Shown: in pieces, positions 12,398 through 25,494 of the stretch
Position numbering within the stretch: position 1 is the first letter of the stretch
Layout: each line of letters opens with the position of its first letter
Origin: Ignavibacteriaceae bacterium
GTDB lineage: Bacteria; Bacteroidota; Ignavibacteria; Ignavibacteriales; Ignavibacteriaceae
Assembly: GCA_013388525.1 (NCBI GenBank)
Contig: JACAFA010000136.1
Coordinates: 1 to 28,253 of the forward strand
Reading direction: 5' to 3'
Length of the DNA: 28,253 nt
The notes under the pieces: model-generated
Told to the model about the DNA's origin: nothing
Databases searched by the model: none
Seen by the model: the letters and a program-made list of their open reading frames with translations, nothing else
Program-made: the position numbers and the translations under genes

Positions 12398-12548
12398 AAT
12401 TTTTAGTCAAAATTATTGGATGATTGATTGTTCTTAATTATTAAAAAAATTTTTGGTTTGGAATATGAGGACTTTAGAGTTTATTTTCAAACGCTTTTGA
12501 TAAAAGATTTTATAAACTCTTTAAAAAGTATGCTTGCTGGTTATTGAT

Positions 12549-13568
12549 ATGGAAGTAAAATTTTACCCTTACACAATTAAACTTAAAGAAGAGTTTACAC
12601 TTTCGGGCAGTTCGAGGTTAAGCACTCCCGCAGTTATGGTTGAAATTAATCATGATGGTTTAATTGGTTATGGTGAAGCTTCGCTACCTCCTTACTTACC
12701 TGAAAATCAAACGAGTGTAATTGATTTTCTTAAGAGTATAGGGCTTGATTCTTTTGATGTAAATTCTGAAATAGATTTGATTCTGGATTATATTACTAAT
12801 TTATCAGAAGGAAATAATGCAGCTAAAGCAGCACTGGATATTGCATTATATGATTTGGTTGGAAAATTAAACAGCATTCCTCTTTATAAATATCTCAATA
12901 TTACAAAAAGAGAAGATATATTTACATCATTTACAATCGGAATAACGAAACCTGATGATATTAAACGAAAAATTGATGCTGTATCTCATTACAAAATTCT
13001 TAAAATTAAGTTAGGAACTGAAGCTGATAAAGAAATTGTCTCAACTATCCGAAAGTATACTGACAAGCCTCTGTTTGTAGATGTAAACCAGGGTTGGTCG
13101 GATAGATATTTTGCTCTTGATATGATTGAGTGGCTTTCCGGACAAGACGTTTTACTTGTTGAGCAACCACTTCCAAAAGACAAAGTGGAAGATATGTTTT
13201 GGTTAAGAGAGAAATGCTCTTTACCTATAATTGCTGATGAAGCAGTTCAAAACCTGAATGATCTAGAGAAGTTTAAAGATATTTATTCAGGTATTAATAT
13301 TAAGTTGATGAAAGCCGGAGGAATCAGGCAGGCTTACAGGATGATACAGCGGGCAAAAGAACTTAATCTGAAAATAATGCTCGGATGCATGACAGAAACA
13401 TCCTGCGCAATAACCGCAGCTTCTCATTTATCTCCTTTAGCTGATTGGGTGGATTTGGATGGAGCCGAGCTAATTTCGAATGATCTATTTAGCGGAATGA
13501 AAATGAAAAATGGCAAAATTGTTATCCCTGATTTACCCGGTCTTGGAATAGAAAAATTATCAAAATAG
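12549..13568 (+). CDS. Dipeptide epimerase (L-Ala-D/L-Glu epimerase type, enolase superfamily)
   Basis: A 339-residue enolase-superfamily enzyme. It has the MLE-subgroup catalytic set: KIK (K152, K154), metal ligands in DVN (D178), VEQP (E205) and ADEA (D230), and the second catalytic lysine in IKLMKAGG (252-258). The C-terminal DLD (D302, D304) is the dipeptide-binding DxD motif that separates dipeptide epimerases from cycloisomerases. L-Ala-D/L-Glu epimerases act in the cytoplasm on murein-derived dipeptides; other dipeptide specificities are common, so the exact substrate is open. A TTG at 12534 would add five residues, but the ATG at 12549 fits the family N terminus (MEVKFYPYTIKL). Its divergent neighbours are two Na+ amino-acid symporters, which fits peptide/amino-acid scavenging. 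Confidence 0.88.
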   Translation: MEVKFYPYTIKLKEEFTLSGSSRLSTPAVMVEINHDGLIGYGEASLPPYLPENQTSVIDFLKSIGLDSFDVNSEIDLILDYITNLSEGNNAAKAALDIALYDLVGKLNSIPLYKYLNITKREDIFTSFTIGITKPDDIKRKIDAVSHYKILKIKLGTEADKEIVSTIRKYTDKPLFVDVNQGWSDRYFALDMIEWLSGQDVLLVEQPLPKDKVEDMFWLREKCSLPIIADEAVQNLNDLEKFKDIYSGINIKLMKAGGIRQAYRMIQRAKELNLKIMLGCMTETSCAITAASHLSPLADWVDLDGAELISNDLFSGMKMKNGKIVIPDLPGLGIEKLSK

Positions 13569-13655
13569 CAAATAAGGGTTATAATTCTGGATATTTATTA
13601 TTTAGCAAATATGATTAAATTTCGATTGCTAATAATTAACAATTAAGGAAAACCA

Positions 13656-14282
13656 ATGGCAAAAAATTATGTTTCTAATAAAGATGAAACTGTAAGAATG
13701 TTCGAAAGTGACTTCATGGAATTTTTTTCCAGAGTTCACTATACTGTCCCAATATATATTTATTTACCTGTAATTCTCGTTCTGATGTATCTTTCAATCT
13801 TTGTTTACAATGTATCAGCAATAAATATTTTTATATTATTTATTGGCGGAGTAGCTGCCTGGACTTTGGCAGAATATTTACTTCACCGTTTTGTCTTCCA
13901 CTTTAAAGCTAAAAGTGAATTTGGTAAAAAAATACATTTTATTTTTCATGGTGTTCATCATGATTATCCGAGCGATTCAAAAAGACTTGTTATGCCTCCA
14001 TCGGTGAGTATTCCTTTAGCAGTTTTATTCTTCTTCTTTTTCAGATTATTATTCGGTGAAATATTGATGATGCCTTTCTTCGCAGGTTTTATACTTGGTT
14101 ATCTTTTTTATGACATTTCACATTATGCAATCCATCATTTCAATATGCATAGTAAGTTCTGGCTTGCAATAAAAAATCACCATATGTTACATCACTATCA
14201 GGATGAGTATAAAGGGTATGGCGTAAGTTCACCATTCTGGGATTATGTTTTCAAAACTACTTTCACTAAGAAGAATAGCTAA
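13656..14282 (+). CDS. Fatty acid hydroxylase / sterol desaturase superfamily membrane protein
   Basis: A 208-residue integral membrane protein with three or four hydrophobic segments and the eight-histidine di-iron pattern: HRFVFH (77-82), HFIFHGVHHD (94-103), HYAIHH (156-161) and HHMLHH (175-180). This spacing resembles the Scs7/FA2H fatty-acid 2-hydroxylase branch more than the sterol C4 oxidases. That would place it in hydroxylation of membrane-lipid acyl chains, for example in sphingolipid- or sulfonolipid-like lipids, but this is inference. An AAGGAAA Shine-Dalgarno site precedes the ATG at ~8 bp. The gap of 87 bp to the epimerase gives no strong operon signal. Confidence 0.87.
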   Translation: MAKNYVSNKDETVRMFESDFMEFFSRVHYTVPIYIYLPVILVLMYLSIFVYNVSAINIFILFIGGVAAWTLAEYLLHRFVFHFKAKSEFGKKIHFIFHGVHHDYPSDSKRLVMPPSVSIPLAVLFFFFFRLLFGEILMMPFFAGFILGYLFYDISHYAIHHFNMHSKFWLAIKNHHMLHHYQDEYKGYGVSSPFWDYVFKTTFTKKNS

Positions 14283-14310: not shown

Positions 14311-14691
14311 ATGAAGGGGAATTTGAAAAAACTTTTGGTTGTCGAAGATAATAAGGAAACCCAGCTACTGATTAAGGTTTCACTCAGGAATGATTTTGAT
14401 GTTAAAATTGCTGCCAGTGCAGATAATGCATTTTCTTTGTTATCAGATAATCATTTTGATCTCGTATTACTTGATGTGAATTTAAACGGGCACGGTGATG
14501 GAAAAAGTATCCTGAAAAACATTCGTGAGGAAATGAAAAATAACGATCTTCGGGTTTTGGTTACGACTGCTTACGATTTGAGTGATGATGATAAAAAATA
14601 TTTTGATGAAAATGCTAATGGATTTATCCAGAAACCATTTGATAAAAAAATTTTATTGAGTTCGATTAATCATCTGTTAAACAACAATTAA
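14311..14691 (+). CDS. Stand-alone response regulator receiver domain
   Basis: A 126-residue CheY-like protein with no output domain. The acidic pair is in VVEDN (E12, D13), the phosphoacceptor is in LLDVN (D55), the conserved Thr is in VTTAY and the Lys is in FIQKPF. It closely resembles the receiver at the C terminus of the protein at 23371-25494: both share AAS...A..LL....FD....D.NL.G...G, TAY, and F-x-x-KP followed by a hydrophobic helix. It ends 263 bp before the polysaccharide operon and may take part in the same phosphorelay. It starts 28 bp after the hydroxylase gene. The receiver identity is certain; the output partner is unknown. Confidence 0.93.
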   Translation: MKGNLKKLLVVEDNKETQLLIKVSLRNDFDVKIAASADNAFSLLSDNHFDLVLLDVNLNGHGDGKSILKNIREEMKNNDLRVLVTTAYDLSDDDKKYFDENANGFIQKPFDKKILLSSINHLLNNN

Positions 14692-14954: not shown

Positions 14955-16190
14955 ATGAATAAAAAGCTACAGATTAGCCCTTCCGGAAATCCATTAGTTG
15001 ACATGACGTGGGGAGGATTTTATCGGGGTGGAACTTATTTTCTTTTAGGTCCAAGAAAATCTGGAAAAACTATATTCGCACTTCAATTTGCCATACAAGC
15101 GGTAAGTTCAAAAGAAACTTGCCTCTATTTTTCCAGTTACAGACCAAAGGATTTAATGATTAATGCCATATCAATCGATATTGATTTGCAGCATTATATC
15201 ACTCAAAATCTTTTTACCCTGGTCAGAGTTACTCCAGCAAAAAATATTGAGCTTGCAAATAATCCGGATTCATACCTTACCGAATACATAAAAGACTTAA
15301 AATCAATAGTAGATCAATATAATCCTGATAGAATAGTATTCGATGAGCTAACCGAATTTGTAGGATACAAAGATCCGGCTTTACTGAGAGAAGCATTTCT
15401 TGAAACTATTGATTACATTGAAAACAAAGGTATTACGAGTCTTTTTTTGATAAGGGAACCTGCAACTTCTGCGGCAAATAAAATTGTTTCAACTTTATTG
15501 AGTCTATCAACGGGAAAAATTGTTCTGGAAAAAAAAGAAGGTCTGTTGAATAAAAATAATCCGGGGAAGATGGTAATCACTCCTAATGTTGGTCATGTTG
15601 AAGGAGAATTTTCCTGCAATTACTACATCGAACCTGATAAAGGAATTCAGGTTGATTATAAACCTGAAATAGTTGTAAAAAAAATTTCCTCTTCTGAAAC
15701 TAAAAATAGTCATTATATGTCGATAGCAGATACTTTACCACTTTTCAGTACTTTGTCTCCTGCGAGTATCTACAATCTGAATGAATTCAAACTTTTGTTA
15801 AATAATCAAATTGCTTTTTACAAGGAGACGGGAATAGTATCAACATTAATTGCAGTAAAGCTTGATGATGATTCTTTGAAAAATAAAATAATTAATGTTG
15901 ATCAACTTGCAAATGCTGTCAGAACAGTTATAGATAAAAAAGATAAAATTTGCATTTTGAAAAACATGCTCCTTATACTTTTTACGAAAGAAAATAGGGA
16001 CGCAAATTCATTAGTGCCATTGTTATTAGATAATCTTTCTAAAGACACTCCTCAATATCTAAGTAAAGTGGCGAAATATATTTCTATATATTCAGTTAAG
16101 ATGGATAGGGGAACACAAAATGCAGAAGATATGTTCAGGCAATTACTTGCTGCAGATATCCCTGATGAAAATAAAATCGGTCTTAACTGA
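14955..16190 (+). CDS. KaiC/RecA-like ATPase with C-terminal degenerate GGDEF-like domain
   Basis: A 411-residue cytoplasmic protein. Residues ~8-200 are a KaiC-type RecA-fold ATPase: GGFYRGGTYFLLGPRKSGKT with Walker A GPRKSGKT (32-39), and Walker B RIVFDE (126-131). Only one ATPase domain is present, whereas clock KaiC has two. Residues ~275-400 follow the secondary-structure rhythm of a GGDEF domain (FKLLLNNQIAFYKETGIVSTLIAVKLDD, LANAVRTVIDKKDKICILKNMLLILFT, YISIYSVKMDRGTQNAEDMFRQLL). KNMLL sits where GGDEF should be, so no cyclase activity is expected. It is the first gene of the polysaccharide operon, overlaps the next by 26 bp and follows a sigma-54-like element. A regulatory or energy-sensing role in export is an inference. 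Confidence 0.75.
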   Translation: MNKKLQISPSGNPLVDMTWGGFYRGGTYFLLGPRKSGKTIFALQFAIQAVSSKETCLYFSSYRPKDLMINAISIDIDLQHYITQNLFTLVRVTPAKNIELANNPDSYLTEYIKDLKSIVDQYNPDRIVFDELTEFVGYKDPALLREAFLETIDYIENKGITSLFLIREPATSAANKIVSTLLSLSTGKIVLEKKEGLLNKNNPGKMVITPNVGHVEGEFSCNYYIEPDKGIQVDYKPEIVVKKISSSETKNSHYMSIADTLPLFSTLSPASIYNLNEFKLLLNNQIAFYKETGIVSTLIAVKLDDDSLKNKIINVDQLANAVRTVIDKKDKICILKNMLLILFTKENRDANSLVPLLLDNLSKDTPQYLSKVAKYISIYSVKMDRGTQNAEDMFRQLLAADIPDENKIGLN

Positions 16191-19041
16191 TTTTAACCAT
16201 CAACCGGTTTTTATTCTCCTTACAGGGATATTATTTATTTCCAGTACTTTTCTCTATTCGCAAAGCCAAAATGATTTGTTAATAACTCATGCTGAAGCGC
16301 ACATGAAAACCGGGAAATTTGGAGAAGCAATAAATCTCCTTAACCGGTACATATCTGCTAATCCTCAGGATGCAACTGGATATAATCTTCGTGGACTCTG
16401 TTATGAAAACAGAAAAGATTATGAAAAATCAGTTTATGATTTCAGATCGGCTGTAAAACTTGCCCCCAATGATAAAAGTTATAATGAAAATCTTCAGCGG
16501 GTTGTAAAAAGCTGGGAAACACTTCTTTATAATAAGATTGTAGGTTTCAAGCGTGAGCTTAAAATTAATCCTGATAAATCTGTTAACTATCTGGAGATAG
16601 GGAAGTGTTATAAAAATCTTGGTAACTGGTCCGAAGCAGAAAATTGGTATGATGAATTTATAAAAAGAGATATTCTTTCATCAGATGAATTGATAAGATA
16701 TACTGAAATTCTTGCTAAGAATAATCATATTTCAAAAGGTGAGCCTTTGCTGAAAAGTTTTACAGAAAAATATCCGGATGATCACAGACTTTGGTCGAGG
16801 TATGGTTATTTCGCTATGTGGCTTGGCAAAAAAGAGATTTCAATAAAAGCTTTTGAAAAAGCTCTTGAACTAAGACCATATTTTAAAGAGGCTCTTGATG
16901 GGTATGATCTTGTAAGAGGAAAAGGATATATCTACACAGTTAATGATACGACAACCAGATTTAATTATGGTTTGCCAGTCTCAACAGGAAAAGGTGAATA
17001 TCCAATAGATAAATATTACAGAATCCTTGCTAAGAAATCTGAGAATAATGAAACAAGAATACTGCTGATAAACGAACTTATAAAAAATAACAGATTTGCT
17101 GAAGCTGAAGAACAATTAAAAATTCTATCCAGGTCTGAATCGTATCAAAGTAAAGTTGATGAGCTGGAAGAAATTCTGGAGTTTAATAAGAGTCAATATT
17201 ACTCCAAAAGAATTGTTGAGTTACAAAAAGAAATTTCGATTAAACCTCTGGATAAAAAGTTGAATCTGGAGTTAGCTCAGTTGCTGGCTGAGAAAAAAGA
17301 GTATGATTCATCTCAGACGGTTTTAACTAAATTAATAAATGAGTATCCATCTAATGAAGAATTGCTTTATAAGTATGCAATCGTAAGTCTGGCTTCTGGT
17401 GATTTGAATACAGCCTATGAGAAAACCGGAATGCTCATTAATAAAAATCCTGACAACAAAAATTATCAGCTTCTTTTCGGGCAATTATCTGTTTGGTTAA
17501 ACAAGGATGTTGATACAGCAAAAATTTTTCTGAATAAAGTTTTAAGTAAGGATCCCGCAAACTATTCTGCACTTTCTACTTTAACTTTATTGTTAATCCA
17601 GAATAATGAGCTTGTCGATGCAGAAAAATATCTGGGAGAACTTTCGCTTATAAATTCTTCAGATCCGGAATACTTAAAACTTACCAATATGCTGGAAACA
17701 CAGAAAAAAAATAATCAGGAGGCAGAATTATTCAGGATTGCTGAAAGTGCAAGAGAGTATTTGTTAAAAAAGGAATGTGATGAGGCAATAAGGTTATTCA
17801 AATTGTATTTATCAAATGAAAATGCTGACAGAAATGTAAATCACGAGTTAGTCAACGCTTATTTATGCAAAGGTGATTTCATAAATGCAATCAGTATTTA
17901 TGATAGGCTTTTAACAGATAACCCCAATGATTATTTCACATTAAAACAAAGAGCAAAACTTTTATTCTGGAGTAAAGATTATTCCGGTGCCTTAAATGAA
18001 TTCGTGAAGTTAAATAAAATAAATCCGGAAGATATTGAAGTAAAACTTCTGCTTGGTGATTCATACACTGCCGTAAAAAATTATGATGAAGCAAAAGTTA
18101 TTTATGAGGAATTACTTGTACTCTCTCCATCTTCTGAGCTACTCAAACAACGATTAAGCTGGATCGAAGGACCTTCCTATCAAAGTGGATTCCCTGCTTA
18201 CACAATGTTAACTCCTGACTTTAGTTATTTTACAGACAACTTTGGATTCCTTTATTCAACTTACGGTCTCAGATTAGATTTAGGAATAACAAATTATCTG
18301 ACTATTGGTGCTTCAGCATATCGTGGTTCACTTGGCTCAGATTCATTAACAAATAATATTTCTATTTATAAGGGAAGTTTAATAAGTCGGTTTTCCCGAA
18401 CAGTATATGCTTCTGCTTCGTTTGGCAGTACAATTTTCCCGGATGATGAAAACCAGTTTTTAGCAGATGCAACTTTAAAAGCCGAACAACCGAAGGTCTA
18501 TTCTTTTTCAGCCAATTTTTATTCAATGGATGCTGCACAGTTGCTGTATTCTCCAAACCTTATCGATACAAGATTACGTTCAAATTATTTTTTACTGATG
18601 GGTGATTATATCATCAAAACCGGCTGGAAGTTTGCTGGCTCTTATGCATTCATAACAATTTCGGATGATAACAAAGCTAACCGTTTACAATTAAGATTCG
18701 GAAAAATATTTGATAAAGTTGTTGGAGTTGGTTATGAATACTATTATTTCGATGTAAAGAATGAAACCAGCCTTTATTGGTCTCCTGAGAATTTTGAATC
18801 ACACAGTATCTGGGTTGATTGGGAAATTGTTAATGACCAAACTGCTACTGCAAATATCGGAGGAAGAGTTGGTTACATTCCTTCTGACGAATTTATTCTT
18901 CGTGAATTTTATGGAATGACCAGTGTTAAACTTGCAGATTCATTTACAATTCAGGGTAGGCTAACTTTCAGCACAAACGCTCAATCCGGAAAAGGTTATA
19001 CTTCAACATCTTTCGGTTTGTCAGCATTCTGGAGTTTTTGA
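16165..19041 (+). CDS. TPR outer-membrane beta-barrel exporter (PgaA/BcsC/PelB-like)
   Basis: A 958-residue envelope protein. A signal peptide spans ~1-31 (hydrophobic VFILLTGILFISSTFLYSQ). Residues ~35-665 are about fifteen tetratricopeptide-like helical pairs, e.g. AEAHMKTGKFGEAINLLNRYISANP. From ~672 to the end, short alternating aromatic/polar strands (YSTYGLRLDLGITNYLTIGASAYRG...) close with the C-terminal phenylalanine of GLSAFWSF, the recognition mark of BAM-inserted barrels. This is the plan of exopolysaccharide exporters: a periplasmic TPR scaffold in front of an outer-membrane pore. The start at 16165 is chosen because it begins directly at the signal peptide; the open frame extends to 16120. 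The neighbouring GT2 synthase supports polysaccharide export. A YaiO-type barrel is an alternative label. Confidence 0.82.
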   Translation: MKIKSVLTDFNHQPVFILLTGILFISSTFLYSQSQNDLLITHAEAHMKTGKFGEAINLLNRYISANPQDATGYNLRGLCYENRKDYEKSVYDFRSAVKLAPNDKSYNENLQRVVKSWETLLYNKIVGFKRELKINPDKSVNYLEIGKCYKNLGNWSEAENWYDEFIKRDILSSDELIRYTEILAKNNHISKGEPLLKSFTEKYPDDHRLWSRYGYFAMWLGKKEISIKAFEKALELRPYFKEALDGYDLVRGKGYIYTVNDTTTRFNYGLPVSTGKGEYPIDKYYRILAKKSENNETRILLINELIKNNRFAEAEEQLKILSRSESYQSKVDELEEILEFNKSQYYSKRIVELQKEISIKPLDKKLNLELAQLLAEKKEYDSSQTVLTKLINEYPSNEELLYKYAIVSLASGDLNTAYEKTGMLINKNPDNKNYQLLFGQLSVWLNKDVDTAKIFLNKVLSKDPANYSALSTLTLLLIQNNELVDAEKYLGELSLINSSDPEYLKLTNMLETQKKNNQEAELFRIAESAREYLLKKECDEAIRLFKLYLSNENADRNVNHELVNAYLCKGDFINAISIYDRLLTDNPNDYFTLKQRAKLLFWSKDYSGALNEFVKLNKINPEDIEVKLLLGDSYTAVKNYDEAKVIYEELLVLSPSSELLKQRLSWIEGPSYQSGFPAYTMLTPDFSYFTDNFGFLYSTYGLRLDLGITNYLTIGASAYRGSLGSDSLTNNISIYKGSLISRFSRTVYASASFGSTIFPDDENQFLADATLKAEQPKVYSFSANFYSMDAAQLLYSPNLIDTRLRSNYFLLMGDYIIKTGWKFAGSYAFITISDDNKANRLQLRFGKIFDKVVGVGYEYYYFDVKNETSLYWSPENFESHSIWVDWEIVNDQTATANIGGRVGYIPSDEFILREFYGMTSVKLADSFTIQGRLTFSTNAQSGKGYTSTSFGLSAFWSF

Positions 19042-19049
19042 TAATTATT

Positions 19050-20438
19050 ATGAATAGAAATCAATCAATAAAGGAATTAAAATTAAGATTCAGAAACGAA
19101 CCGGCTGATAATAATTTTAATGGTAACGAGTGGAAATTAATCAGACGAATAATTTTCAGCGGAATCATTTCGATTATTCTGCTGCTTGTAATTTATTATA
19201 CTTTACCACTAACTATTTTAATAGTATCATCGTTGATTGAATATGCAACGATAATCGCACTCATAATATTTTTATTCATTCTGTTAATACGCTATTTCGG
19301 AATACTTTTTTTCTCTTACTTCTATATGAATGAATATACATTCAAACCAACAAATGGGTTTAAGCCATTCGTGTCGATTATTGTCCCGGTTTTTAATGAA
19401 GCAAAGGTTTTGAATAAATCTATCAATTCATTGTTAAATCTTGATTATGAAGATTATGAGATTATAATTGTTAACGATGGTTCAACAGATAATACAAAAA
19501 GTGTAGCAGAAAAATTTGTTGGATATCAGAAAGGTAAATATGGCGGAGTAAAAATATCACTTATAAATAAACCAAATGGCGGAAAGTCAAGTGCTCTTAA
19601 TCTTGGAATAAAAGTTTCGAAAGCTGAATTTGTATTGTGCATGGATGGAGATTCAATTCTAACTCCTCTTTCTCTGAAAATGGCAATTCGTCACTTTGTC
19701 GAGCCTGAAGTCGGAGCAGTTGCCGGAAATGTTAAAGTCCTTAACAGAAAAAAATTTTTTACAGATTTACAAGCTCTCGAATATGTTGAAGGATTAAATA
19801 TGGCACGTGGTGCACAAAGTGCTATTCGTTTAGTAAATATAATTCCCGGTCCGATTGGTGTTTTTAGAAAGTCAGCAATACAAAGTGTAGATTATTATTC
19901 GGGTGATACTTTTGCTGAAGATGCAGATATGACTCTTCGCCTCATTTCTCACGGCTGGAAAATTTATTACGAACCAAAATCTATTTCTTACACAGAAGCA
20001 CCGGTAAAACTTCAGCAACTTTTAAAACAAAGATACAGATGGACAAGAGGAATAATTCAATCTATCAGAAAACACAAAAAGTTAATGCTGAATCCAACAA
20101 TAAACTTTGGAGATTCATTTATTCTCTGGACGATGTTTTATGAAGCATTGCTCTGGCCACCAATGAATATTGCGGCTCATCTGTTTTTTATTTTTGCAGC
20201 TCTGGTTTTTGGTTTTACATCTCTGATATTTTACTGGTGGGCAGCTCTTGCGCTTCTTGATATTGTTGCTGCAATTTATTGTGTTGCTGCCGAAAAAGAA
20301 GAATTCAGATTGGTTGGCTATGCAATAATTTATAGAATGGTTTTTATTTTGATAATAGATATTTGTAAAGCAATGTCAACAATAGAAGAATTTTTAGGAA
20401 TCAAAATGACCTGGGGCAAACTAGATAGGGTCGGTTAA
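19050..20438 (+). CDS. Processive family 2 glycosyltransferase (PgaC/IcaA-like polysaccharide synthase)
   Basis: A 462-residue inner-membrane synthase. Two hydrophobic segments (~33-60, ~65-90) precede a GT2 catalytic domain (~106-335), and two or three segments (~355-440) follow. Catalytic residues are in place: D143 in NDGST, DGD (199-201), the AED acid/base triplet (D291) and QRYRW (Q327-W331) marking processive synthases. KPNGGKSSALN and VGAVAGNVKVLNR...LQALEY match poly-beta-1,6-GlcNAc synthases better than cellulose synthases. There is no PilZ domain, so any c-di-GMP control must act through a partner. A TTG at 19038 overlaps the upstream stop, but the ATG at 19050, eight bases after that stop, is preferred. 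The polymer made is unproven. Confidence 0.9.
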   Translation: MNRNQSIKELKLRFRNEPADNNFNGNEWKLIRRIIFSGIISIILLLVIYYTLPLTILIVSSLIEYATIIALIIFLFILLIRYFGILFFSYFYMNEYTFKPTNGFKPFVSIIVPVFNEAKVLNKSINSLLNLDYEDYEIIIVNDGSTDNTKSVAEKFVGYQKGKYGGVKISLINKPNGGKSSALNLGIKVSKAEFVLCMDGDSILTPLSLKMAIRHFVEPEVGAVAGNVKVLNRKKFFTDLQALEYVEGLNMARGAQSAIRLVNIIPGPIGVFRKSAIQSVDYYSGDTFAEDADMTLRLISHGWKIYYEPKSISYTEAPVKLQQLLKQRYRWTRGIIQSIRKHKKLMLNPTINFGDSFILWTMFYEALLWPPMNIAAHLFFIFAALVFGFTSLIFYWWAALALLDIVAAIYCVAAEKEEFRLVGYAIIYRMVFILIIDICKAMSTIEEFLGIKMTWGKLDRVG

Positions 20439-20466
20439 TAAAGTCATAATAAAAGAGGGTTAACAA

Positions 20467-20907
20467 ATGGAACTTATTCCAATTTTATCAACAATAATAC
20501 TTGTTGCTACAATAAGCACATTTATTCTTGCCGTTGGTGCTTATATCTTATATAAGATTCGTGAAGGCAAAGCAAGAGTAACACCTGAGCGGAAACCGGA
20601 ATATCTTGAAGCTGAATATTTAGTACCCAAAGAAAAGAAGGAACATAAAGTTTTCGTTGAGGAAGTTATTGAACCTAAACCAAAAGTAAATGTTAATGCT
20701 GAAGGTTTTGAACCAGTGAAACCGGTCAGCAAAAAACAACCTGATTCTAAATACAGCGTTGTGGAAGATTTAGGCAGCAACAAGGAAGCGAAGTCAACTT
20801 CCCGGAATAAGGTGGTAATGCCAAAAACAAAATTTGAAAAATATAACTTGCCTTCTGACGAAATGGTTATCAAAGATTCTTTTCAAGAAGAGATAAAGTG
20901 GCGATAG
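20467..20907 (+). CDS. Single-pass membrane protein with long charged tail, operon-specific
   Basis: A 146-residue protein I do not recognise. Residues ~5-31 form one transmembrane helix with few N-terminal residues, followed by KIREGKAR, so the tail is predicted to be cytoplasmic. Residues ~35-146 are rich in Lys, Glu, Pro and Val, low in predicted structure, and resemble a flexible linker or docking tail. Position between the synthase and the deacetylase-like gene suggests a synthase accessory subunit, as PgaD is for PgaC; PgaD itself has two helices, so this would be an analogue at most. It has one of the better Shine-Dalgarno sites of the operon (AGAGGG, 20454-20459). The last 10 bases overlap the next gene. 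Confidence 0.75.
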   Translation: MELIPILSTIILVATISTFILAVGAYILYKIREGKARVTPERKPEYLEAEYLVPKEKKEHKVFVEEVIEPKPKVNVNAEGFEPVKPVSKKQPDSKYSVVEDLGSNKEAKSTSRNKVVMPKTKFEKYNLPSDEMVIKDSFQEEIKWR

Positions 20908-22772
20908 AAAATAAAAATAAATTCAGATCCCATATATTTTTTCTGTTTCTGACCGGTTTAATAGTTCTGATTTTTTCTGCGCTTATTTATTTACTTATCA
21001 TCAGAACAGTGTATGGCAGATTTTCAGCTGCCCAGCTTGTGCCGAATGCAAAAGCAGTAAATGAATTATTATTTGGTACTTTTCCTTCTACCGCAATACT
21101 TAATTCTTATTACACCAGAAATATTCTTTCTGAAGAAAGCGGCTGGTTTGATGATAACCTTAAAACATGGCAAAAGTCTTTACGGAATCTTGATATAAAA
21201 TATCAGCTCATTCCTGATGAAGACGTTGAGCTTGGAAAAATAGATGAATATCATCTCATTGTACTTTCCGGATGTAAATCTTTAAGTGAAAGAGAGATTA
21301 TCCAGCTAAAGAAATATCTGGAAAATGGTGGAAGCATTTTTGCAACAGGCGGAACCGGTTCATTTTCTGAAGATGGTAAATGGAGAGGATGGGAATTTTT
21401 ATCAGATGTTTTTGGAATTACTTTTAGAAAAGAAATTGGAAATGATGATAAAACCAAAATTCATACATTGAGAGGCGGACTTCCTTTAACAGCTAATATT
21501 CCTACAGGATTTCCTCTTAACATCGCTACCTGGGATCATCCTGTTGCTGCTGAAGTTCTGGATCCCCGTACAACTCAGGTAAGTTTTTGGTACAACCATA
21601 AACTTGAAGATGGTCTGGTAAGAGAAGGAATTAAAGAGTCTGCAGGAATTGTTTATGGTAACTATGGTAAGGGAAGATTTGTCTGGATGGGATTTGAAAT
21701 AAATTCAGTTCTCGGACGGCAGGATGATTATGTTTATTTCGACAGACTTTTTAATAACTGTATAAGCTGGTTGACTTATAAACCAATTGCTTACCTGAGG
21801 AATTGGCCAAATGGTTACAGAGGTGCTGCTATGATAGCACCAATAGTATCTGATAGTCTGCAAAATTTAAATCACTTGCTTTCAGTTTTAGGTGAAACAA
21901 AAACCAAAGCAACCTTTTTTGTTAATCCATCAATTGCCGGACAAAATCCTCAACTAATAAAAAGTTTAGTAAACTTTGGTGAGATAGGAGCTTTCATTAA
22001 TCTTGAATTTAGTAACGCAATCTCAGATAACGATGATATTCTAAAAAATATTTTGCAGGATAAGATACAGCTTGAAAAAATCATCGGAGTTAAAGTTGAT
22101 GGAATCTATCCATCAGTAAATGTTTCATCTGAAAATATTCTTAAAACTCTGATAGCAAGTAAGTTCAAATACTTCATATCCGATTCGCTGGATGACAGAT
22201 CAGTACCAAAAACAATCAAACGCAAAGAGGATAAGATAATATCAATTTCAAGAACTGTCCGTGATGATTATGATATCATCAGAGATTTTAATCTGACAGA
22301 AAAAGAGTTTCAGTTTTATTCATACCAGGAAGATGTTGATCGGATTGCATTTGAAAGCGGATTATATGTATTCAAAGTGCATTTAGATTATCAGTGTTCA
22401 CCACAAAATGTAGAAGTAGTAAAGGACTTAATCCGTGATATTAAATCGAAAGATTATTGGATTGCCACTGCATCAGAAATTGCTGATTGGTCGGATAAAA
22501 AAGAGTTTATCGAACTTAGAACTCAAAAAAGAGGAAGCAGCAGGGTAGCAGTTACAATTACAAACTACGGTATTTTTAATATTAATTATCTGGTAGTTGA
22601 TGTTGACTTAAATCAAAAAGCTAAAAGGGTAAGTCTTGATACGGAGATTATAGGAACTAAGAAAGCACAATATAAACACAAAGATGGCTCGCAATTCGTA
22701 TTTATGTTAATCGACGAACTTGCTGCTGGTGAATCGCGTACTTATTATATCGATTATGATCTCTACAACTGA
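20898..22772 (+). CDS. Membrane-anchored GATase-like plus degenerate polysaccharide-deacetylase-like protein
   Basis: A 624-residue protein. An N-terminal signal anchor (~13-36) places the rest in the periplasm. Residues ~60-295 read as a class I glutamine-amidotransferase-like (ThuA / beta-galactosidase-trimerisation type) domain with YHLIVLSGCKSLSEREIIQLKKYLENGGSIFATG-like spacing but no obvious nucleophile triad. Residues ~308-490 follow the NodB deacetylase fold (TKATFFVNP at 337-345; LIKSLVNFGEIGAF), yet the catalytic TFDDG is replaced by MIAPIVSD (312-319) and the HxxxH zinc site by FINLEFSN. Residues ~510-624 look like a beta-sandwich. The start is GTG (20898) inside the previous gene, with GAAGAGA upstream. 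Position suggests a PgaB-like partner without deacetylase activity. Confidence 0.75.
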   Translation: MAIENKNKFRSHIFFLFLTGLIVLIFSALIYLLIIRTVYGRFSAAQLVPNAKAVNELLFGTFPSTAILNSYYTRNILSEESGWFDDNLKTWQKSLRNLDIKYQLIPDEDVELGKIDEYHLIVLSGCKSLSEREIIQLKKYLENGGSIFATGGTGSFSEDGKWRGWEFLSDVFGITFRKEIGNDDKTKIHTLRGGLPLTANIPTGFPLNIATWDHPVAAEVLDPRTTQVSFWYNHKLEDGLVREGIKESAGIVYGNYGKGRFVWMGFEINSVLGRQDDYVYFDRLFNNCISWLTYKPIAYLRNWPNGYRGAAMIAPIVSDSLQNLNHLLSVLGETKTKATFFVNPSIAGQNPQLIKSLVNFGEIGAFINLEFSNAISDNDDILKNILQDKIQLEKIIGVKVDGIYPSVNVSSENILKTLIASKFKYFISDSLDDRSVPKTIKRKEDKIISISRTVRDDYDIIRDFNLTEKEFQFYSYQEDVDRIAFESGLYVFKVHLDYQCSPQNVEVVKDLIRDIKSKDYWIATASEIADWSDKKEFIELRTQKRGSSRVAVTITNYGIFNINYLVVDVDLNQKAKRVSLDTEIIGTKKAQYKHKDGSQFVFMLIDELAAGESRTYYIDYDLYN

Positions 22773-23167
22773 TCTGGCTCTCTCTCCTGAAATTATTTAC
22801 CTGAACTAAATTTTTTACTGAGCCACTAAACAATCTTTACTCCACTATCTCTGCACAATTAAGAACGGATTCTTGAATTAATAATCCAATAAATACTCAG
22901 TCTCCTCAAATGATTAATATGTGTTAGAAAAATTATCACGATGGTAGGATTTTACTCCAATTTTTACTTACTCTCTACCGGTAACTAAATTCATACTTAA
23001 AGAAAAATTAAACCCAAAATAAATATCTCTATCCCCGAATTATGTTCGGTCAGTAAAATTTAGGTAATTTTAGGCTTTCTTAAGAAGAATTTAGTAATTT
23101 AAGTGAGGTAAAAAGAGAAATTTTTGTAAAGACAATTAATTCAGTCATCTTTCCTGGTAAGTATTAA

Positions 23168-23186
23168 ATCAATATTTAATATTGAT
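23168..23186. promoter_or_regulatory. Perfect palindrome ATCAATATTTAATATTGAT (candidate operator)
   Basis: Nine-base arms surround a single central T. The centre is 25 bp upstream of the GG of the sigma-54-like element. The outer ATCAA...TTGAT is shared with the repeat at 14870-14887, whose centre is ~35 bp upstream of its own element. Confidence 0.5.
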
Positions 23187-23200
23187 AAAACGAGGTTGGA

Positions 23201-23216
23201 TGGCATAATAATTGAC
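23201..23216 (+). promoter_or_regulatory. Sigma-54-like -24/-12 promoter element
   Basis: TGGCATAATAATTGAC keeps TGGCA and TTG at exact RpoN spacing but has A in place of the -12 C. It matches the element at 14913 in 13 of 15 positions from the GG onwards. A competing sigma-70 reading is TTGATA (23182-23187), an 18-bp spacer, then TAATAA (23206-23211), so the class of promoter is undecided. The leader to the ATG would be ~143 nt. Confidence 0.42.
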
Positions 23217-23239
23217 CAAACATCAATCTGGAAGTTAGT

Positions 23240-23269
23240 TATCTCAGGAGTCGGTGGAATTCTGAGATA
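23240..23269 (+). promoter_or_regulatory. Hairpin in the 5' leader of the PAS/kinase-like gene
   Basis: TATCTCAG (23240-23247) pairs with CTGAGATA (23262-23269), eight base pairs, around the 14-nt loop GAGTCGGTGGAATT. It lies between the promoter-like element and the start codon and has no T tract, so it is not a terminator. GGA in the loop would fit an RNA-binding-protein site, but nothing else supports that. Confidence 0.4.
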
Positions 23270-23370
23270 TACTTTATTGAGTAATTTAGTTTATATTCAA
23301 CAAATTAAAACAACAGTTTACTTGCAGCTTTATAGAAATAATAAATAAAATTATAGCGCACCATTGAAAG

Positions 23371-25494
23371 ATGCTTGATATACTTGTAAAAAATAATCCT
23401 AATCCCGTTTTTGTTTACGACAAAGAAAATTTAAGATTTCTCGAAGTAAATGATGCTGCATTAAATCTTTATGGTTATTCTGAAGATGAATTTCTCCAGA
23501 TGGATCTGACAGACCTTTACACACCTGAGGATATTCAAACTTTACTTGAAACTTCTGAAGACTCTCTAACCGAAGGAGAATTTGGTAAAGCATTAAGACA
23601 CAGGAAAAAAGATGGGAGTTTTATCTTTGTAAGAATAAGTAAATTCAATTATCAATTTGATGATACTCCGGCGATTTATAATTTAATTGATAATGTAACG
23701 GAGAAACTTGATCTCGAAAAATACAACCAGATTTTCAGATCTGCATTCGAAAACACACAGGACATCATTTTCGTCACGGATTCAACAGGAATTATAACGT
23801 TTGCTAATGATGCTGCATCCAAGACTCTTGGAATTCCAAGATTAGAATTAGTTAATACTTCACTAACCTCTCATTGTGAGGATGAAGATAGAGTATTTTT
23901 AAATAGTTCTGTTTTCCAATCTCATATCAAAGAAACTGTTACCTTCACGATAAGACTGAAAAATTCAGCCGGTGAATTTGTTGAAACTGAGATGACATCA
24001 ACTCCAATCTTTAATAGTAATCACGATGTAGAATCATTCTCATTCATTGCAAGACACTTACAAGTTTCTGCCGGTTCTGTTGCCAGCCCAAAAGAAATAG
24101 TAAAAGAAGTAATTAAAGAAGTCGTTGTAGAAAAACCAGTTTATAAGGAATCCATTCAAAATGAATTAAACACTTCTTTTTTATCAAGTGTATTTCACGA
24201 GATTTTAACACCGATGAATGTGATTCTTGGTTTTTCACAAGAATTAACTGAAAGTATAGAAAATCTTTCTCCGGAACAGAAAGAAGCTGCTGATATCATA
24301 AATCAGAATAGAAGCTCGTTACTTAGCCTGATGAATTCAATTATTGAATTCTCCGATATCCAGTCAAAAAAAGTCTCTAATGAAATTAGTGAAGTTACAA
24401 TAGTTGATATTATTGAACCGCTTGATAAAAATATTAAAGAAATCACCGGTCAAAAGGAAATCGAATTTGCATATGGGAAAATATCTTCTTCATTAAAGTT
24501 CTCAACTGATAGAAGGAAATTTGAAAGTTTGCTCAACAATTTAATCAGGATCGTCAGTAAAATCAGTTCTCAAAAAAAGATTTACCTTTCTGCTTATCCG
24601 GTTGAAGATGACACTTTCAATATTTCTGTATCAGATGGTTTTGCAAGATCATCCGGTCCTTTGCTTGAAACTTTGAAGAAACTATTTATTGAGAAAAAAG
24701 ATCCTAAAGAAATGGGCTTATCTAAATTGAGTTTTCAGATAATTAACTCGCTTATTAATATGCTCGAAGGAAAATTTGTTACAATTAATGAACATACTGA
24801 TAAACACGATTTTGCTTTTAATTTCCCCCTGACATTAAATAAAAGAATAGAAATTCCCCCGATAGAAGAAGAAATTAAGGAACCGATAATTACACCGGAT
24901 AAAATTGAAATGAAGGAACCGGAGCCTTTCAGCCTGAAGGAGGAAATAGAAATTGAAGATGTAGAATCAGATAATACTAAAGCTGAACCAATTGAAGAAA
25001 TTCCAATTACGGAAGTAATTGAAGTGGAAGATAAACCCGAAGTTAAGATGGAAGAAGATACCATAACCGAAGAAGAAATTTCAATAAATGAAACACCTGA
25101 ACCGGCTAAAAGAAAGAATGGTATATCTTCACTCAGATGTCTTTATATAGAAGATCAGATTGACTCTCAGATTCTTTTTAAGGTTCAAATGAAGGAACTG
25201 AAGAATATTCAGTTTGCCGCAAGCTTTGAGGAAGCTCTGCCACTTCTGGAATCTCAGAAATTTGATTTCATCGTTATGGATATCAATCTTCAAGGTGAAT
25301 ATAATGGTTTGGATGCGCTTAAGATTATTCATCAAATGACAGGCTTAGAAAATATTCCCGTAATTGCAGTAACCGCTTACGTCCTTCCCGGCGATAAGGA
25401 AAAGTTTATCGCAACCGGTTTCACTGATTTTATTTCAAAGCCAATTTTTCGGGAAAAGTTGCTTGAATCGCTAAATAAGATTTTTGTAAACTAA
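23371..25494 (+). CDS. PAS-PAS-histidine kinase-like-receiver hybrid with eroded ATP-binding site
   Basis: A 707-residue soluble protein. PAS 1 (~3-115: NPNPVFVYDKENLRFLEVND) and PAS 2 (~125-232: TQDIIFVTDSTGIITFANDAA) lead into a dimerisation helix with the H box FHEILTPMNVILGF, phosphoacceptor H276. The HATPase region (~370-485) keeps the fold pattern but has lost key boxes: the N-box Asn is Ile in NLIRIVSKIS, G1 reads SDGFARSS instead of DxGxG, and G2 reads EMGLSKLS. An acidic Glu/Pro-rich linker (~490-585) precedes a good receiver domain with phosphoacceptor D637 (FIVMDIN) and ISKP. A phosphorelay scaffold fed by another kinase is therefore as likely as an active kinase. No transmembrane segment was seen. 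Confidence 0.85.
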   Translation: MLDILVKNNPNPVFVYDKENLRFLEVNDAALNLYGYSEDEFLQMDLTDLYTPEDIQTLLETSEDSLTEGEFGKALRHRKKDGSFIFVRISKFNYQFDDTPAIYNLIDNVTEKLDLEKYNQIFRSAFENTQDIIFVTDSTGIITFANDAASKTLGIPRLELVNTSLTSHCEDEDRVFLNSSVFQSHIKETVTFTIRLKNSAGEFVETEMTSTPIFNSNHDVESFSFIARHLQVSAGSVASPKEIVKEVIKEVVVEKPVYKESIQNELNTSFLSSVFHEILTPMNVILGFSQELTESIENLSPEQKEAADIINQNRSSLLSLMNSIIEFSDIQSKKVSNEISEVTIVDIIEPLDKNIKEITGQKEIEFAYGKISSSLKFSTDRRKFESLLNNLIRIVSKISSQKKIYLSAYPVEDDTFNISVSDGFARSSGPLLETLKKLFIEKKDPKEMGLSKLSFQIINSLINMLEGKFVTINEHTDKHDFAFNFPLTLNKRIEIPPIEEEIKEPIITPDKIEMKEPEPFSLKEEIEIEDVESDNTKAEPIEEIPITEVIEVEDKPEVKMEEDTITEEEISINETPEPAKRKNGISSLRCLYIEDQIDSQILFKVQMKELKNIQFAASFEEALPLLESQKFDFIVMDINLQGEYNGLDALKIIHQMTGLENIPVIAVTAYVLPGDKEKFIATGFTDFISKPIFREKLLESLNKIFVN

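What the first reader, a model, noticed from the sequence alone, without database searches (positions are those of the whole stretch)
14955..25494. Synthase-dependent exopolysaccharide locus of unusual composition
The order is ATPase, TPR/beta-barrel exporter, PgaC-like synthase, one-helix protein and NodB-like periplasmic protein. The last four match the logic of pgaABCD with the pieces rearranged. New relative to pga, bcs, pel and alginate are the KaiC/GGDEF-like first gene and the inactive-looking deacetylase. Tight spacing and overlaps from 14955 to 22772 show one operon. That the synthase and barrel form a secretion machine is inference from established families.
Basis: partly seen in the sequence, partly recalled or inferred. 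Interest (0 to 1): 0.72.

Follow-up and report, generated by a model that had tools for sequence, protein, structure and literature searches.

The report
Sugar-polymer export operon, unusual regulator
Bacteria related to Ignavibacterium carry a conserved five-gene set that looks like a machine for making and exporting a sugar polymer, built from parts that resemble three different known biofilm machines but, it seems, mostly without the signal molecule that usually switches such machines on.

Summary
Window 14955-22772 carries KaiC-like NTPase, TPR/barrel candidate, GT2 synthase, one-helix protein and NodB-fold protein, tightly spaced on +. The order is exact in 56 of 61 relatives with enough sequence and in 7 of 7 checkable loci of a divergent, GC-richer lineage.

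It is not simply a rearranged pga. The synthase is nearest PgaC (31%). The NodB-fold protein resembles PelA without its hydrolase and lacks the metal-binding His pair in every aligned copy. The KaiC-like protein, with a possible GGDEF-like domain, and the one-helix protein with a conserved tail motif resemble the cellulose pair BcsE/BcsF. Most relatives add a GH9 hydrolase, absent here.

Of 25 carrier genomes examined, 24 show no canonical GGDEF protein.

Best reading: an undescribed synthase-dependent exopolysaccharide system whose BcsE/F-like module scaffolds the synthase under another input. Polymer and ligand are unknown. In two natural losses of the synthase, the one-helix protein's membrane helix is the most divergent of 61, so it probably contacts the missing parts. 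Function is inferred; nothing was measured.

The parts
14955..16190 (+). Cytosolic KaiC/RecA-like NTPase domain (residues 1-240, about 14955-15674) plus C-terminal possible GGDEF-like domain (residues ~270-400, about 15762-16154); proposed BcsE-like scaffold/sensor
16120..19041 (+). Periplasmic TPR array plus C-terminal outer-membrane barrel candidate (18181-19038); proposed exporter
   Evidence: TPR_19 E 6.8e-41, 6 stretches; last residue F in the window and F, L or Y in 59 of 64 proteins, window included; barrel identity not significant by sequence (BCSC_C in 2 of 24, best E 0.029; no meaningful PDB match).
19038..20438 (+). Inner-membrane processive-type GT2 synthase (five hydrophobic segments, 2 before and 3 after the catalytic domain)
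   Evidence: PF00535 E 1.3e-32; TIGR03937 PgaC_IcaA 192.4 bits, cut-off 422.3; 31% identity to E. coli PgaC, E 8e-47; DGS 57 of 57, ED 56 of 57, Q[RK]xRW 57 of 57 relatives over 400 aa.
20467..20907 (+). One-helix adaptor: near-invariant membrane helix (residues 1-34, 20467-20568), variable linker, tail motif (residues 122-135, 20830-20871), Trp near the end; proposed BcsF-like anchor
   Evidence: Alignment of 61 homologues, window included, and 8 of the divergent lineage; no Pfam match better than E 0.096 and no NCBIfam match.
20898..22772 (+). Membrane-anchored periplasmic PelA-like pseudo-deacetylase: helix 13-39, ThuA/GH42M-like alpha/beta (from residue 64), carbohydrate-esterase fold (~300-537) without the His pair, beta-rich end
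23371..25494 (+). Neighbouring hybrid sensor kinase (PAS, PAS, HisKA, receiver); possible input, not shown to be in the operon
   Evidence: recurrent neighbour in 22 of 31 loci.
14311..14691 (+). Neighbouring single-domain response regulator upstream
   Evidence: PF00072 E 5.6e-19; matched in 10 of 80 relatives' loci.

Best explanation
The five genes encode a synthase-dependent exopolysaccharide secretion machine. Inferred working: (1) the GT2 synthase polymerises a sugar from the cytosol and passes the chain across the inner membrane; (2) the one-helix protein sits beside the synthase through its near-invariant helix and holds the KaiC-like protein at the membrane through its cytosolic tail motif, as BcsF holds BcsE in the cellulose machine; (3) the KaiC-like protein is mainly a (pseudo-)NTPase scaffold and sensor whose degenerate GGDEF-like domain reads a ligand or partner other than c-di-GMP, possibly under two-component control; (4) the membrane-anchored PelA-like pseudo-deacetylase binds or guides the polymer in the periplasm without deacetylating it; (5) the TPR/barrel protein exports it. 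In most relatives a GH9 hydrolase may trim or clear the chain, as BcsZ is thought to do for cellulose (recalled); it is absent beside this window. Shown here: gene order, co-occurrence, domain content, loss of metal ligands, and lack of recognisable canonical GGDEF proteins in 24 of 25 carriers examined. Inferred: every step of the mechanism, and the polymer.
For: Exact order in 56 of 61 loci and in 7 of 7 divergent-lineage loci with the KaiC gene on the fetched piece (L091-L096, L099; in L091 the small gene is recognised only weakly, 17 bits). Co-occurrence: 31 full-length KaiC-like and 32 full-length NodB-fold hits in 197 class genomes, 31 shared; 55 and 50 of 395 phylum genomes at E<=1e-20, all 50 shared. 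Of seven genomes whose locus shows no synthase, four (L014 partial, L018, L020, L029) have a 60-66% relative on another contig; L009, L016 and L066 have best hits of only E 4e-29 to 7e-31 at 29-30%. Natural test: L009 and L016 lost barrel and synthase from the locus, apparently independently (L009 groups with the complete L015 at 100/96); their small-protein helices are the two most divergent of 61 (7 and 11 mismatches, next 6, median 3). PelA fold match over three domains (PelA domains from PMC12022489 section 4 part 1). BcsE/F precedent. GH9-cluster gene within 1.5 kb upstream in 57 of 65 loci, catalytic-type motifs in 58 of 61 (motifs recalled). c-di-GMP enzymes: 18 of 18 GGDEF-family hits in 17 lineage-1 genomes lack GG[DE]EF; 7 of 8 divergent-lineage genomes have no hit; EAL in 1 of 20; PilZ in 0 of 5.
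Against: KaiC-like and small proteins persist intact in L009 and L016 without a nearby synthase or barrel, so they may have a second role. No match of the KaiC-like family to BcsE (hhalign probability 0.5%; PF10995 in 0 of 5 genomes). The GGDEF-like domain is not significant: 0.8% against a mixed GGDEF set (score 17.2), 0.2% against E. coli DGCs alone (13.7), which is below the response-regulator control (14.6); a positive control (E. coli DGCs against BcsE) failed too, so the test has little power. The window's own Walker A and B look intact, so ATP use is not excluded. Barrel not identified by sequence. The PelA match has rmsd 11 and ranks 31st, below many single-domain deacetylases; much of its Z may come from the esterase fold. 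One carrier, G347, has a canonical GGDEF-EAL protein. HD-GYP proteins were not searched and genome completeness is not given. No experiment; no complex could be predicted.
Confidence: 0.6

Rival explanations
1. A divergent pga locus: the system makes poly-beta-1,6-N-acetylglucosamine and the NodB-fold protein is a decayed PgaB.
For: Synthase scores best with PgaC among NCBIfam models and is 31% identical to E. coli PgaC; TPR part hits PgaA models.
Against: PgaC and PgaA cut-offs far from met; PgaB gives no profile match; three-domain PelA match instead; relatives carry GH9, whose known substrates are mostly beta-1,4-linked (recalled).
Confidence: 0.1
2. A cellulose- or chitosan-like beta-1,4 polymer is made, with GH9 as the cognate hydrolase; a Bcs-type system in other clothes.
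For: GH9-cluster gene next to the operon in 57 of 65 loci, the only GH9 hit in L074's genome; BcsE/F-like module; BCSC_C as a weak barrel hit in 2 of 24.
Against: Synthase is 22% identical to E. coli BcsA against 31% to PgaC, no PilZ hit and no bcsB-like gene recognised in the operon; of 8 genomes checked, 7 chosen for lacking the adjacent GH9, 6 have no GH9 at all, among them L001 and L072 with the whole operon; no GH9 match in the divergent-lineage loci fetched.
Confidence: 0.25
3. The KaiC-like protein is an active ATPase or switch that powers or gates assembly, rather than a pseudo-NTPase scaffold.
For: Window has GPRKSGKT and DE in Walker B; K35 and T39 are invariant in 35 of 35.
Against: The GK lysine is Arg in 24 of 35; in the divergent lineage Walker A and B are degraded in six of seven operon copies while the operon is kept.
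Confidence: 0.25
4. Not a polymer exporter: the GT2 modifies a membrane lipid or protein, and the TPR/barrel and KaiC-like proteins serve envelope signalling.
For: No polymer is known; KaiC-like and small proteins survive without the synthase in two genomes.
Against: Processive-type motif Q[RK]xRW in 57 of 57; synthase, TPR/barrel and a PelA-like protein together fit the parts list of synthase-dependent secretion (PMC7112194, passages).
Confidence: 0.08

Closest known systems
E. coli type II Bcs cellulose system, BcsE/BcsF module (PMC7439463, PMC11470070, passages)
   Same: KaiC-like NTPase domain followed by a possible GGDEF-like domain; single-helix partner with a cytosolic tail; TPR/barrel exporter; a hydrolase in most relatives.
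   Different: No REC* domain seen between the two, no RxxD, no PF10995 match in 5 genomes, no PilZ hit; BcsB, BcsQ, BcsR not recognised in the operon; 24 of 25 carriers show no canonical GGDEF protein; synthase closer to PgaC.
Pel system, PelA (9CGY, PMC12022489)
   Same: Alpha/beta ThuA-like, carbohydrate-esterase and beta-rich domains in the same order.
   Different: No hydrolase domain, no His pair, membrane-anchored; GT2 synthase, whereas Pel uses PelF/PelG (recalled).
PNAG system pgaABCD
   Same: TPR/barrel, PgaC-like GT2, small membrane protein, NodB-fold periplasmic protein.
   Different: Equivalog cut-offs not met; PgaB unrelated by profile; extra KaiC-like protein; GH9 in relatives.
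CE4 pseudoenzymes such as 7BKF (title seen)
   Same: NodB fold reported as a pseudoenzyme.
   Different: Here in a three-domain PelA-like setting inside a secretion operon, in some loci as a tandem pair.

Membership tests
Synthase-dependent exopolysaccharide systems (parts list of PMC7112194) | Inner-membrane polysaccharide synthase | tested here: met
   motifs in 57 relatives. Activity not tested.
Synthase-dependent exopolysaccharide systems (parts list of PMC7112194) | c-di-GMP-binding regulatory or co-polymerase part (given there as typical) | tested here: inconclusive
   No RxxD in my register of the GGDEF-like domain; 24 of 25 carriers without a canonical GGDEF protein, EAL 1 of 20, PilZ 0 of 5. 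Binding itself needs an assay.
[quoted passage not shown]
   TPR clearly met; barrel only by terminal residue and weak hits.
Synthase-dependent exopolysaccharide systems (parts list of PMC7112194) | Periplasmic modification enzymes | tested here: inconclusive
   NodB-fold protein lacks the His pair; GH9 in 57 of 65 relatives but not beside the window's operon.
pga/PNAG | PgaC equivalog score | tested here: not met
   192.4 bits against cut-off 422.3.
pga/PNAG | PgaB two-domain deacetylase-hydrolase | tested here: not met
   No PgaB model among the hits; hhalign probability 0.07%.
pga/PNAG | PgaD subunit | not tested
   PgaD was not fetched in full; the small protein has no NCBIfam match.
Bcs cellulose | BcsA with PilZ domain | tested here: not met
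   No PilZ hit in P0003; 22% identity to BcsA.
BcsE | PF10995 family score | tested here: not met
   0 of 5 genomes, E. coli control rings; no hit for the window protein.
BcsE | RxxD I-site | tested here: not met
   In my register columns 327-330 read mostly DKKD, D330 invariant, no Arg at 327 in 35 of 35.
BcsE | KaiC-like NTPase fold followed by GGDEF fold | tested here: inconclusive
   NTPase met; GGDEF part weak.
PelA | Alpha/beta, esterase and beta-rich domain order | tested here: met
PelA | N-terminal hydrolase domain and deacetylase metal ligands | tested here: not met
   Protein starts with a membrane helix and the alpha/beta domain; His pair absent in 18 of 18.

The most novel reading that the evidence does not exclude
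A further kind of synthase-dependent exopolysaccharide secretion system, spread over two lineages of its phylum, in which a BcsE/BcsF-like scaffold runs without c-di-GMP, having kept the folds of an NTPase and a cyclase domain as reader of another signal, and in which dead deacetylases act as the periplasmic polymer conduit.
Probability: 0.4. Interest if true: 0.76.

Novelty: new variant of a known kind. Interest (0 to 1): 0.6.

Why it matters
A survey of synthase-dependent systems counts five polymers and treats c-di-GMP binding as a typical part (PMC7112194, passages). A conserved system of this kind in bacteria that seem mostly to lack c-di-GMP enzymes would show that a BcsE/F-type control module can work on another input, and would make the question of what a degenerate GGDEF-like domain reads in such hosts directly testable. 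It also offers a family-wide case of a NodB-fold protein kept for a non-catalytic role in polymer secretion.

Tried and rejected
Simple pga reading: rejected by cut-offs and by the PgaB comparison. c-di-GMP control as in BcsE: disfavoured, as no RxxD in my register and no canonical GGDEF protein in 24 of 25 carrier genomes examined. Sequence proof of the GGDEF-like domain: failed. In one search the alignment to a mixed set (three E. coli DGCs and four degenerate relatives) was colinear over 142 columns with the highest score of the six comparisons of that domain, yet probability 0.8%; E. coli DGCs alone scored below the response-regulator control; the positive control with BcsE failed. BcsE is not among the 50 rows shown by VIA-align, whose rows cover residues 1-240 only; this says nothing about the C-terminal domain. 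Barrel by PDB profile: one meaningless hit at E 0.96. Promoter/terminator scan no better than shuffles (34 against mean 38.5, 4 against mean 4.2). dN/dS in L009/L016: synonymous sites saturated, no use. Conserved WR at the end of the small protein as a mere result of the 10-nt overlap: weakened, because the Trp is kept in 7 of 8 aligned divergent-lineage proteins, whose genes do not overlap. Paper searches (10 used) showed no title or abstract start that describes this operon; only open-licence PMC papers are held, lists were capped, and most entries were seen as listing only. Read as passages: PMC7439463, PMC11470070, PMC7112194; PMC12022489 as passages and section 4 part 1.

First loose count of GH9 (66 loci) was replaced by the strict one, 57 of 65. 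In the order count, consecutive ORFs with the same label (split ORFs, a duplicated barrel, a second NodB-fold paralogue) were collapsed to one. A1 uses 34 of the 120 listed of 495 homologues plus the window; A2 uses 17 of 120 listed of 977 plus the window. GH9 and SGNH labels of whole clusters rest on one Pfam-tested member each, the SGNH one below its cut-off. On checking before this final version I corrected the account of the deacetylase motifs, of the synthase hits in L009, L016 and L066, and of the GGDEF controls; the confidence of the best explanation went from 0.62 to 0.6 for the last.
Full report
Where it lies. No whole genome is held for the window. Its KaiC-like protein is closest, among the loci fetched, to that of an Ignavibacteriaceae MAG (L001, 72%). 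GC of the window is 0.343.

Observation. ORFs at 14955, 16120, 19038, 20467, 20898 and 23371 are as described. Families: KaiC PF06745 E 1.3e-24; TPR_19 E 6.8e-41 plus a 286-residue C-terminal part; GT2 PF00535 E 1.3e-32; no significant family for the 146-residue protein; weak PF08532 and PF01522 for the 624-residue protein; PAS/HisKA/receiver for the last. The first five are tightly packed; the kinase is 598 nt away.

Conservation. A search with 35 rows (the window and 34 of the 120 listed of 495 homologues) gave 80 loci of 122 confirmed. Among the 61 with at least 8 kb after the KaiC-like gene, 56 show barrel, GT2, small, NodB-fold in that order; exceptions L009, L014, L016, L020, L029. The small gene overlaps the NodB-fold gene by 10 nt in 57 of 59 loci. 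In the class sample, 31 of 197 genomes hold a full-length KaiC-like protein and 32 a full-length NodB-fold protein, 31 the same; 12 further genomes match only in the KaiC domain, as ordinary KaiC-like proteins would. In the phylum sample (395 genomes, E<=1e-20) the numbers are 55, 50 and 50 shared. Thirteen of these 50 form a divergent set by score; I fetched nine of the thirteen and two other regions. Seven of the nine have the KaiC-like gene on the fetched piece and all seven show the five genes in order, the small gene of L091 being recognised only weakly (17 bits); the two others are cut. GC of the nine is 0.47-0.65. Kinship between genomes is confounded in all these counts. L101, with a similar KaiC-like protein, shows no other operon gene nearby, and L100 shows a shorter barrel-like protein and a different GT2.

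c-di-GMP. Of 17 lineage-1 genomes (5, 12; L009 and L016, counted here, hold only part of the operon) each has one GGDEF-family hit, L016's has two; none of the 18 has GG[DE]EF. Of 8 divergent-lineage genomes, 7 have no hit and G347 has a canonical one in a protein that also matches EAL. EAL: 1 of 20. PilZ: 0 of 5. HD-GYP was not searched. Completeness of these genomes is not given, so absence is provisional. E. coli and others ring as controls.

Synthase. Best NCBIfam model PgaC_IcaA, 192.4 bits against a cut-off of 422.3; 31% identity to E. coli PgaC over 292 columns, 22% to BcsA. Catalytic motifs are kept in 56-57 of 57 relatives.

Small protein. Helix consensus MELIPILSTIILVATISTFILAVGAYILYK is nearly invariant over 61 rows and recurs with few changes in the divergent lineage, where the linker differs but a tail motif (window KFEKY..., other relatives such as KFFKYTSEGYIP, divergent lineage FWEYTDEGFVP) and a terminal-region Trp (7 of 8) are kept. 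A permissive tail pattern is found in 55 of 61; no chance level was computed. L009 and L016 show no barrel and no synthase in the locus; no close synthase was found elsewhere in those genomes (best E 4e-29 and 7e-31); the barrel was not sought elsewhere. They are not sisters (L009+L015 at 100/96; L016 with L012 at a weak 91/19), and have the two most divergent helices of 61 (7 and 11 mismatches; next 6, 6, 6; median 3). If ranks were random, that pair would be top in 1 of 1830 cases (my arithmetic), though a faster-evolving lineage could do the same. This suggests that the helix touches something that was lost. That KaiC-like and small proteins remain in both suggests that these two form a pair of their own; in E. 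coli the cytosolic BcsF tail adds a strand to the BcsE NTPase sheet (PMC11470070, passages).

Extras. A gene of the GH9 cluster (one member tested: PF00759 E 3.9e-80 with CelD_N) lies within 1.5 kb upstream in 57 of 65 loci. It is absent beside the window; of eight genomes checked, six have no GH9, L016's has four elsewhere and L074's has the adjacent one only. An SGNH-hydrolase-like gene (one member tested, 27.8 bits, below the cut-off of 32.9) accompanies 19 of 60 loci with a synthase, between barrel and synthase.

Interpretation. The parts list fits synthase-dependent secretion. What sets it apart is the mixture (PgaC-like synthase, PelA-like dead periplasmic protein, BcsE/F-like cytosolic module) and the apparent lack of c-di-GMP enzymes in nearly all hosts examined. 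I file it as a new variant of a known kind. The mechanism is inferred from family knowledge and comparison; no activity, interaction or polymer was measured.

Noticed in passing
23371-25494: Hybrid kinase has PAS, HisKA and receiver hits but no HATPase_c hit at E<=0.5; its ATP-binding part looks degenerate by eye.
   Followed up: no
L009 11252-11692 and L016 11222-11583: Barrel and synthase are missing exactly between KaiC-like and small genes, leaving 360-440 bases in which no gene was called; L016 also lacks the NodB-fold gene.
   Followed up: partly
L029 and its genome G009: Operon split: KaiC-like and barrel on one contig, synthase and NodB-fold gene together on another.
   Followed up: partly
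L005, L006, L010, L018, L022, L023, L025, L031, L051, L055, L062: One or more genes that look by eye like a dlt-type cassette (AMP-binding ligase, Pfam-tested in L022 only; small protein; MBOAT-like) in 11 of 80 loci; possible acyl or alanyl modification.
   Followed up: no
L017, L033, L034, L036, L047: A second, shorter KaiC-like paralogue (about 250-356 aa) directly upstream of the main one.
   Followed up: no
L081-L085, L103-L114: A conserved ~620-aa protein with a degenerate GGDEF domain (such as FGRLDEK-F in place of the GGDEF stretch) in each of the 17 lineage-1 genomes examined.
   Followed up: partly
12534-14282: Enolase-family and fatty-acid-hydroxylase-family genes upstream are recurrent neighbours (hydroxylase matched in 41 of 80 loci).
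   Followed up: no
L101 6433-7776: A KaiC plus GGDEF_2-like protein of the divergent type without recognised operon genes next to it.
   Followed up: no
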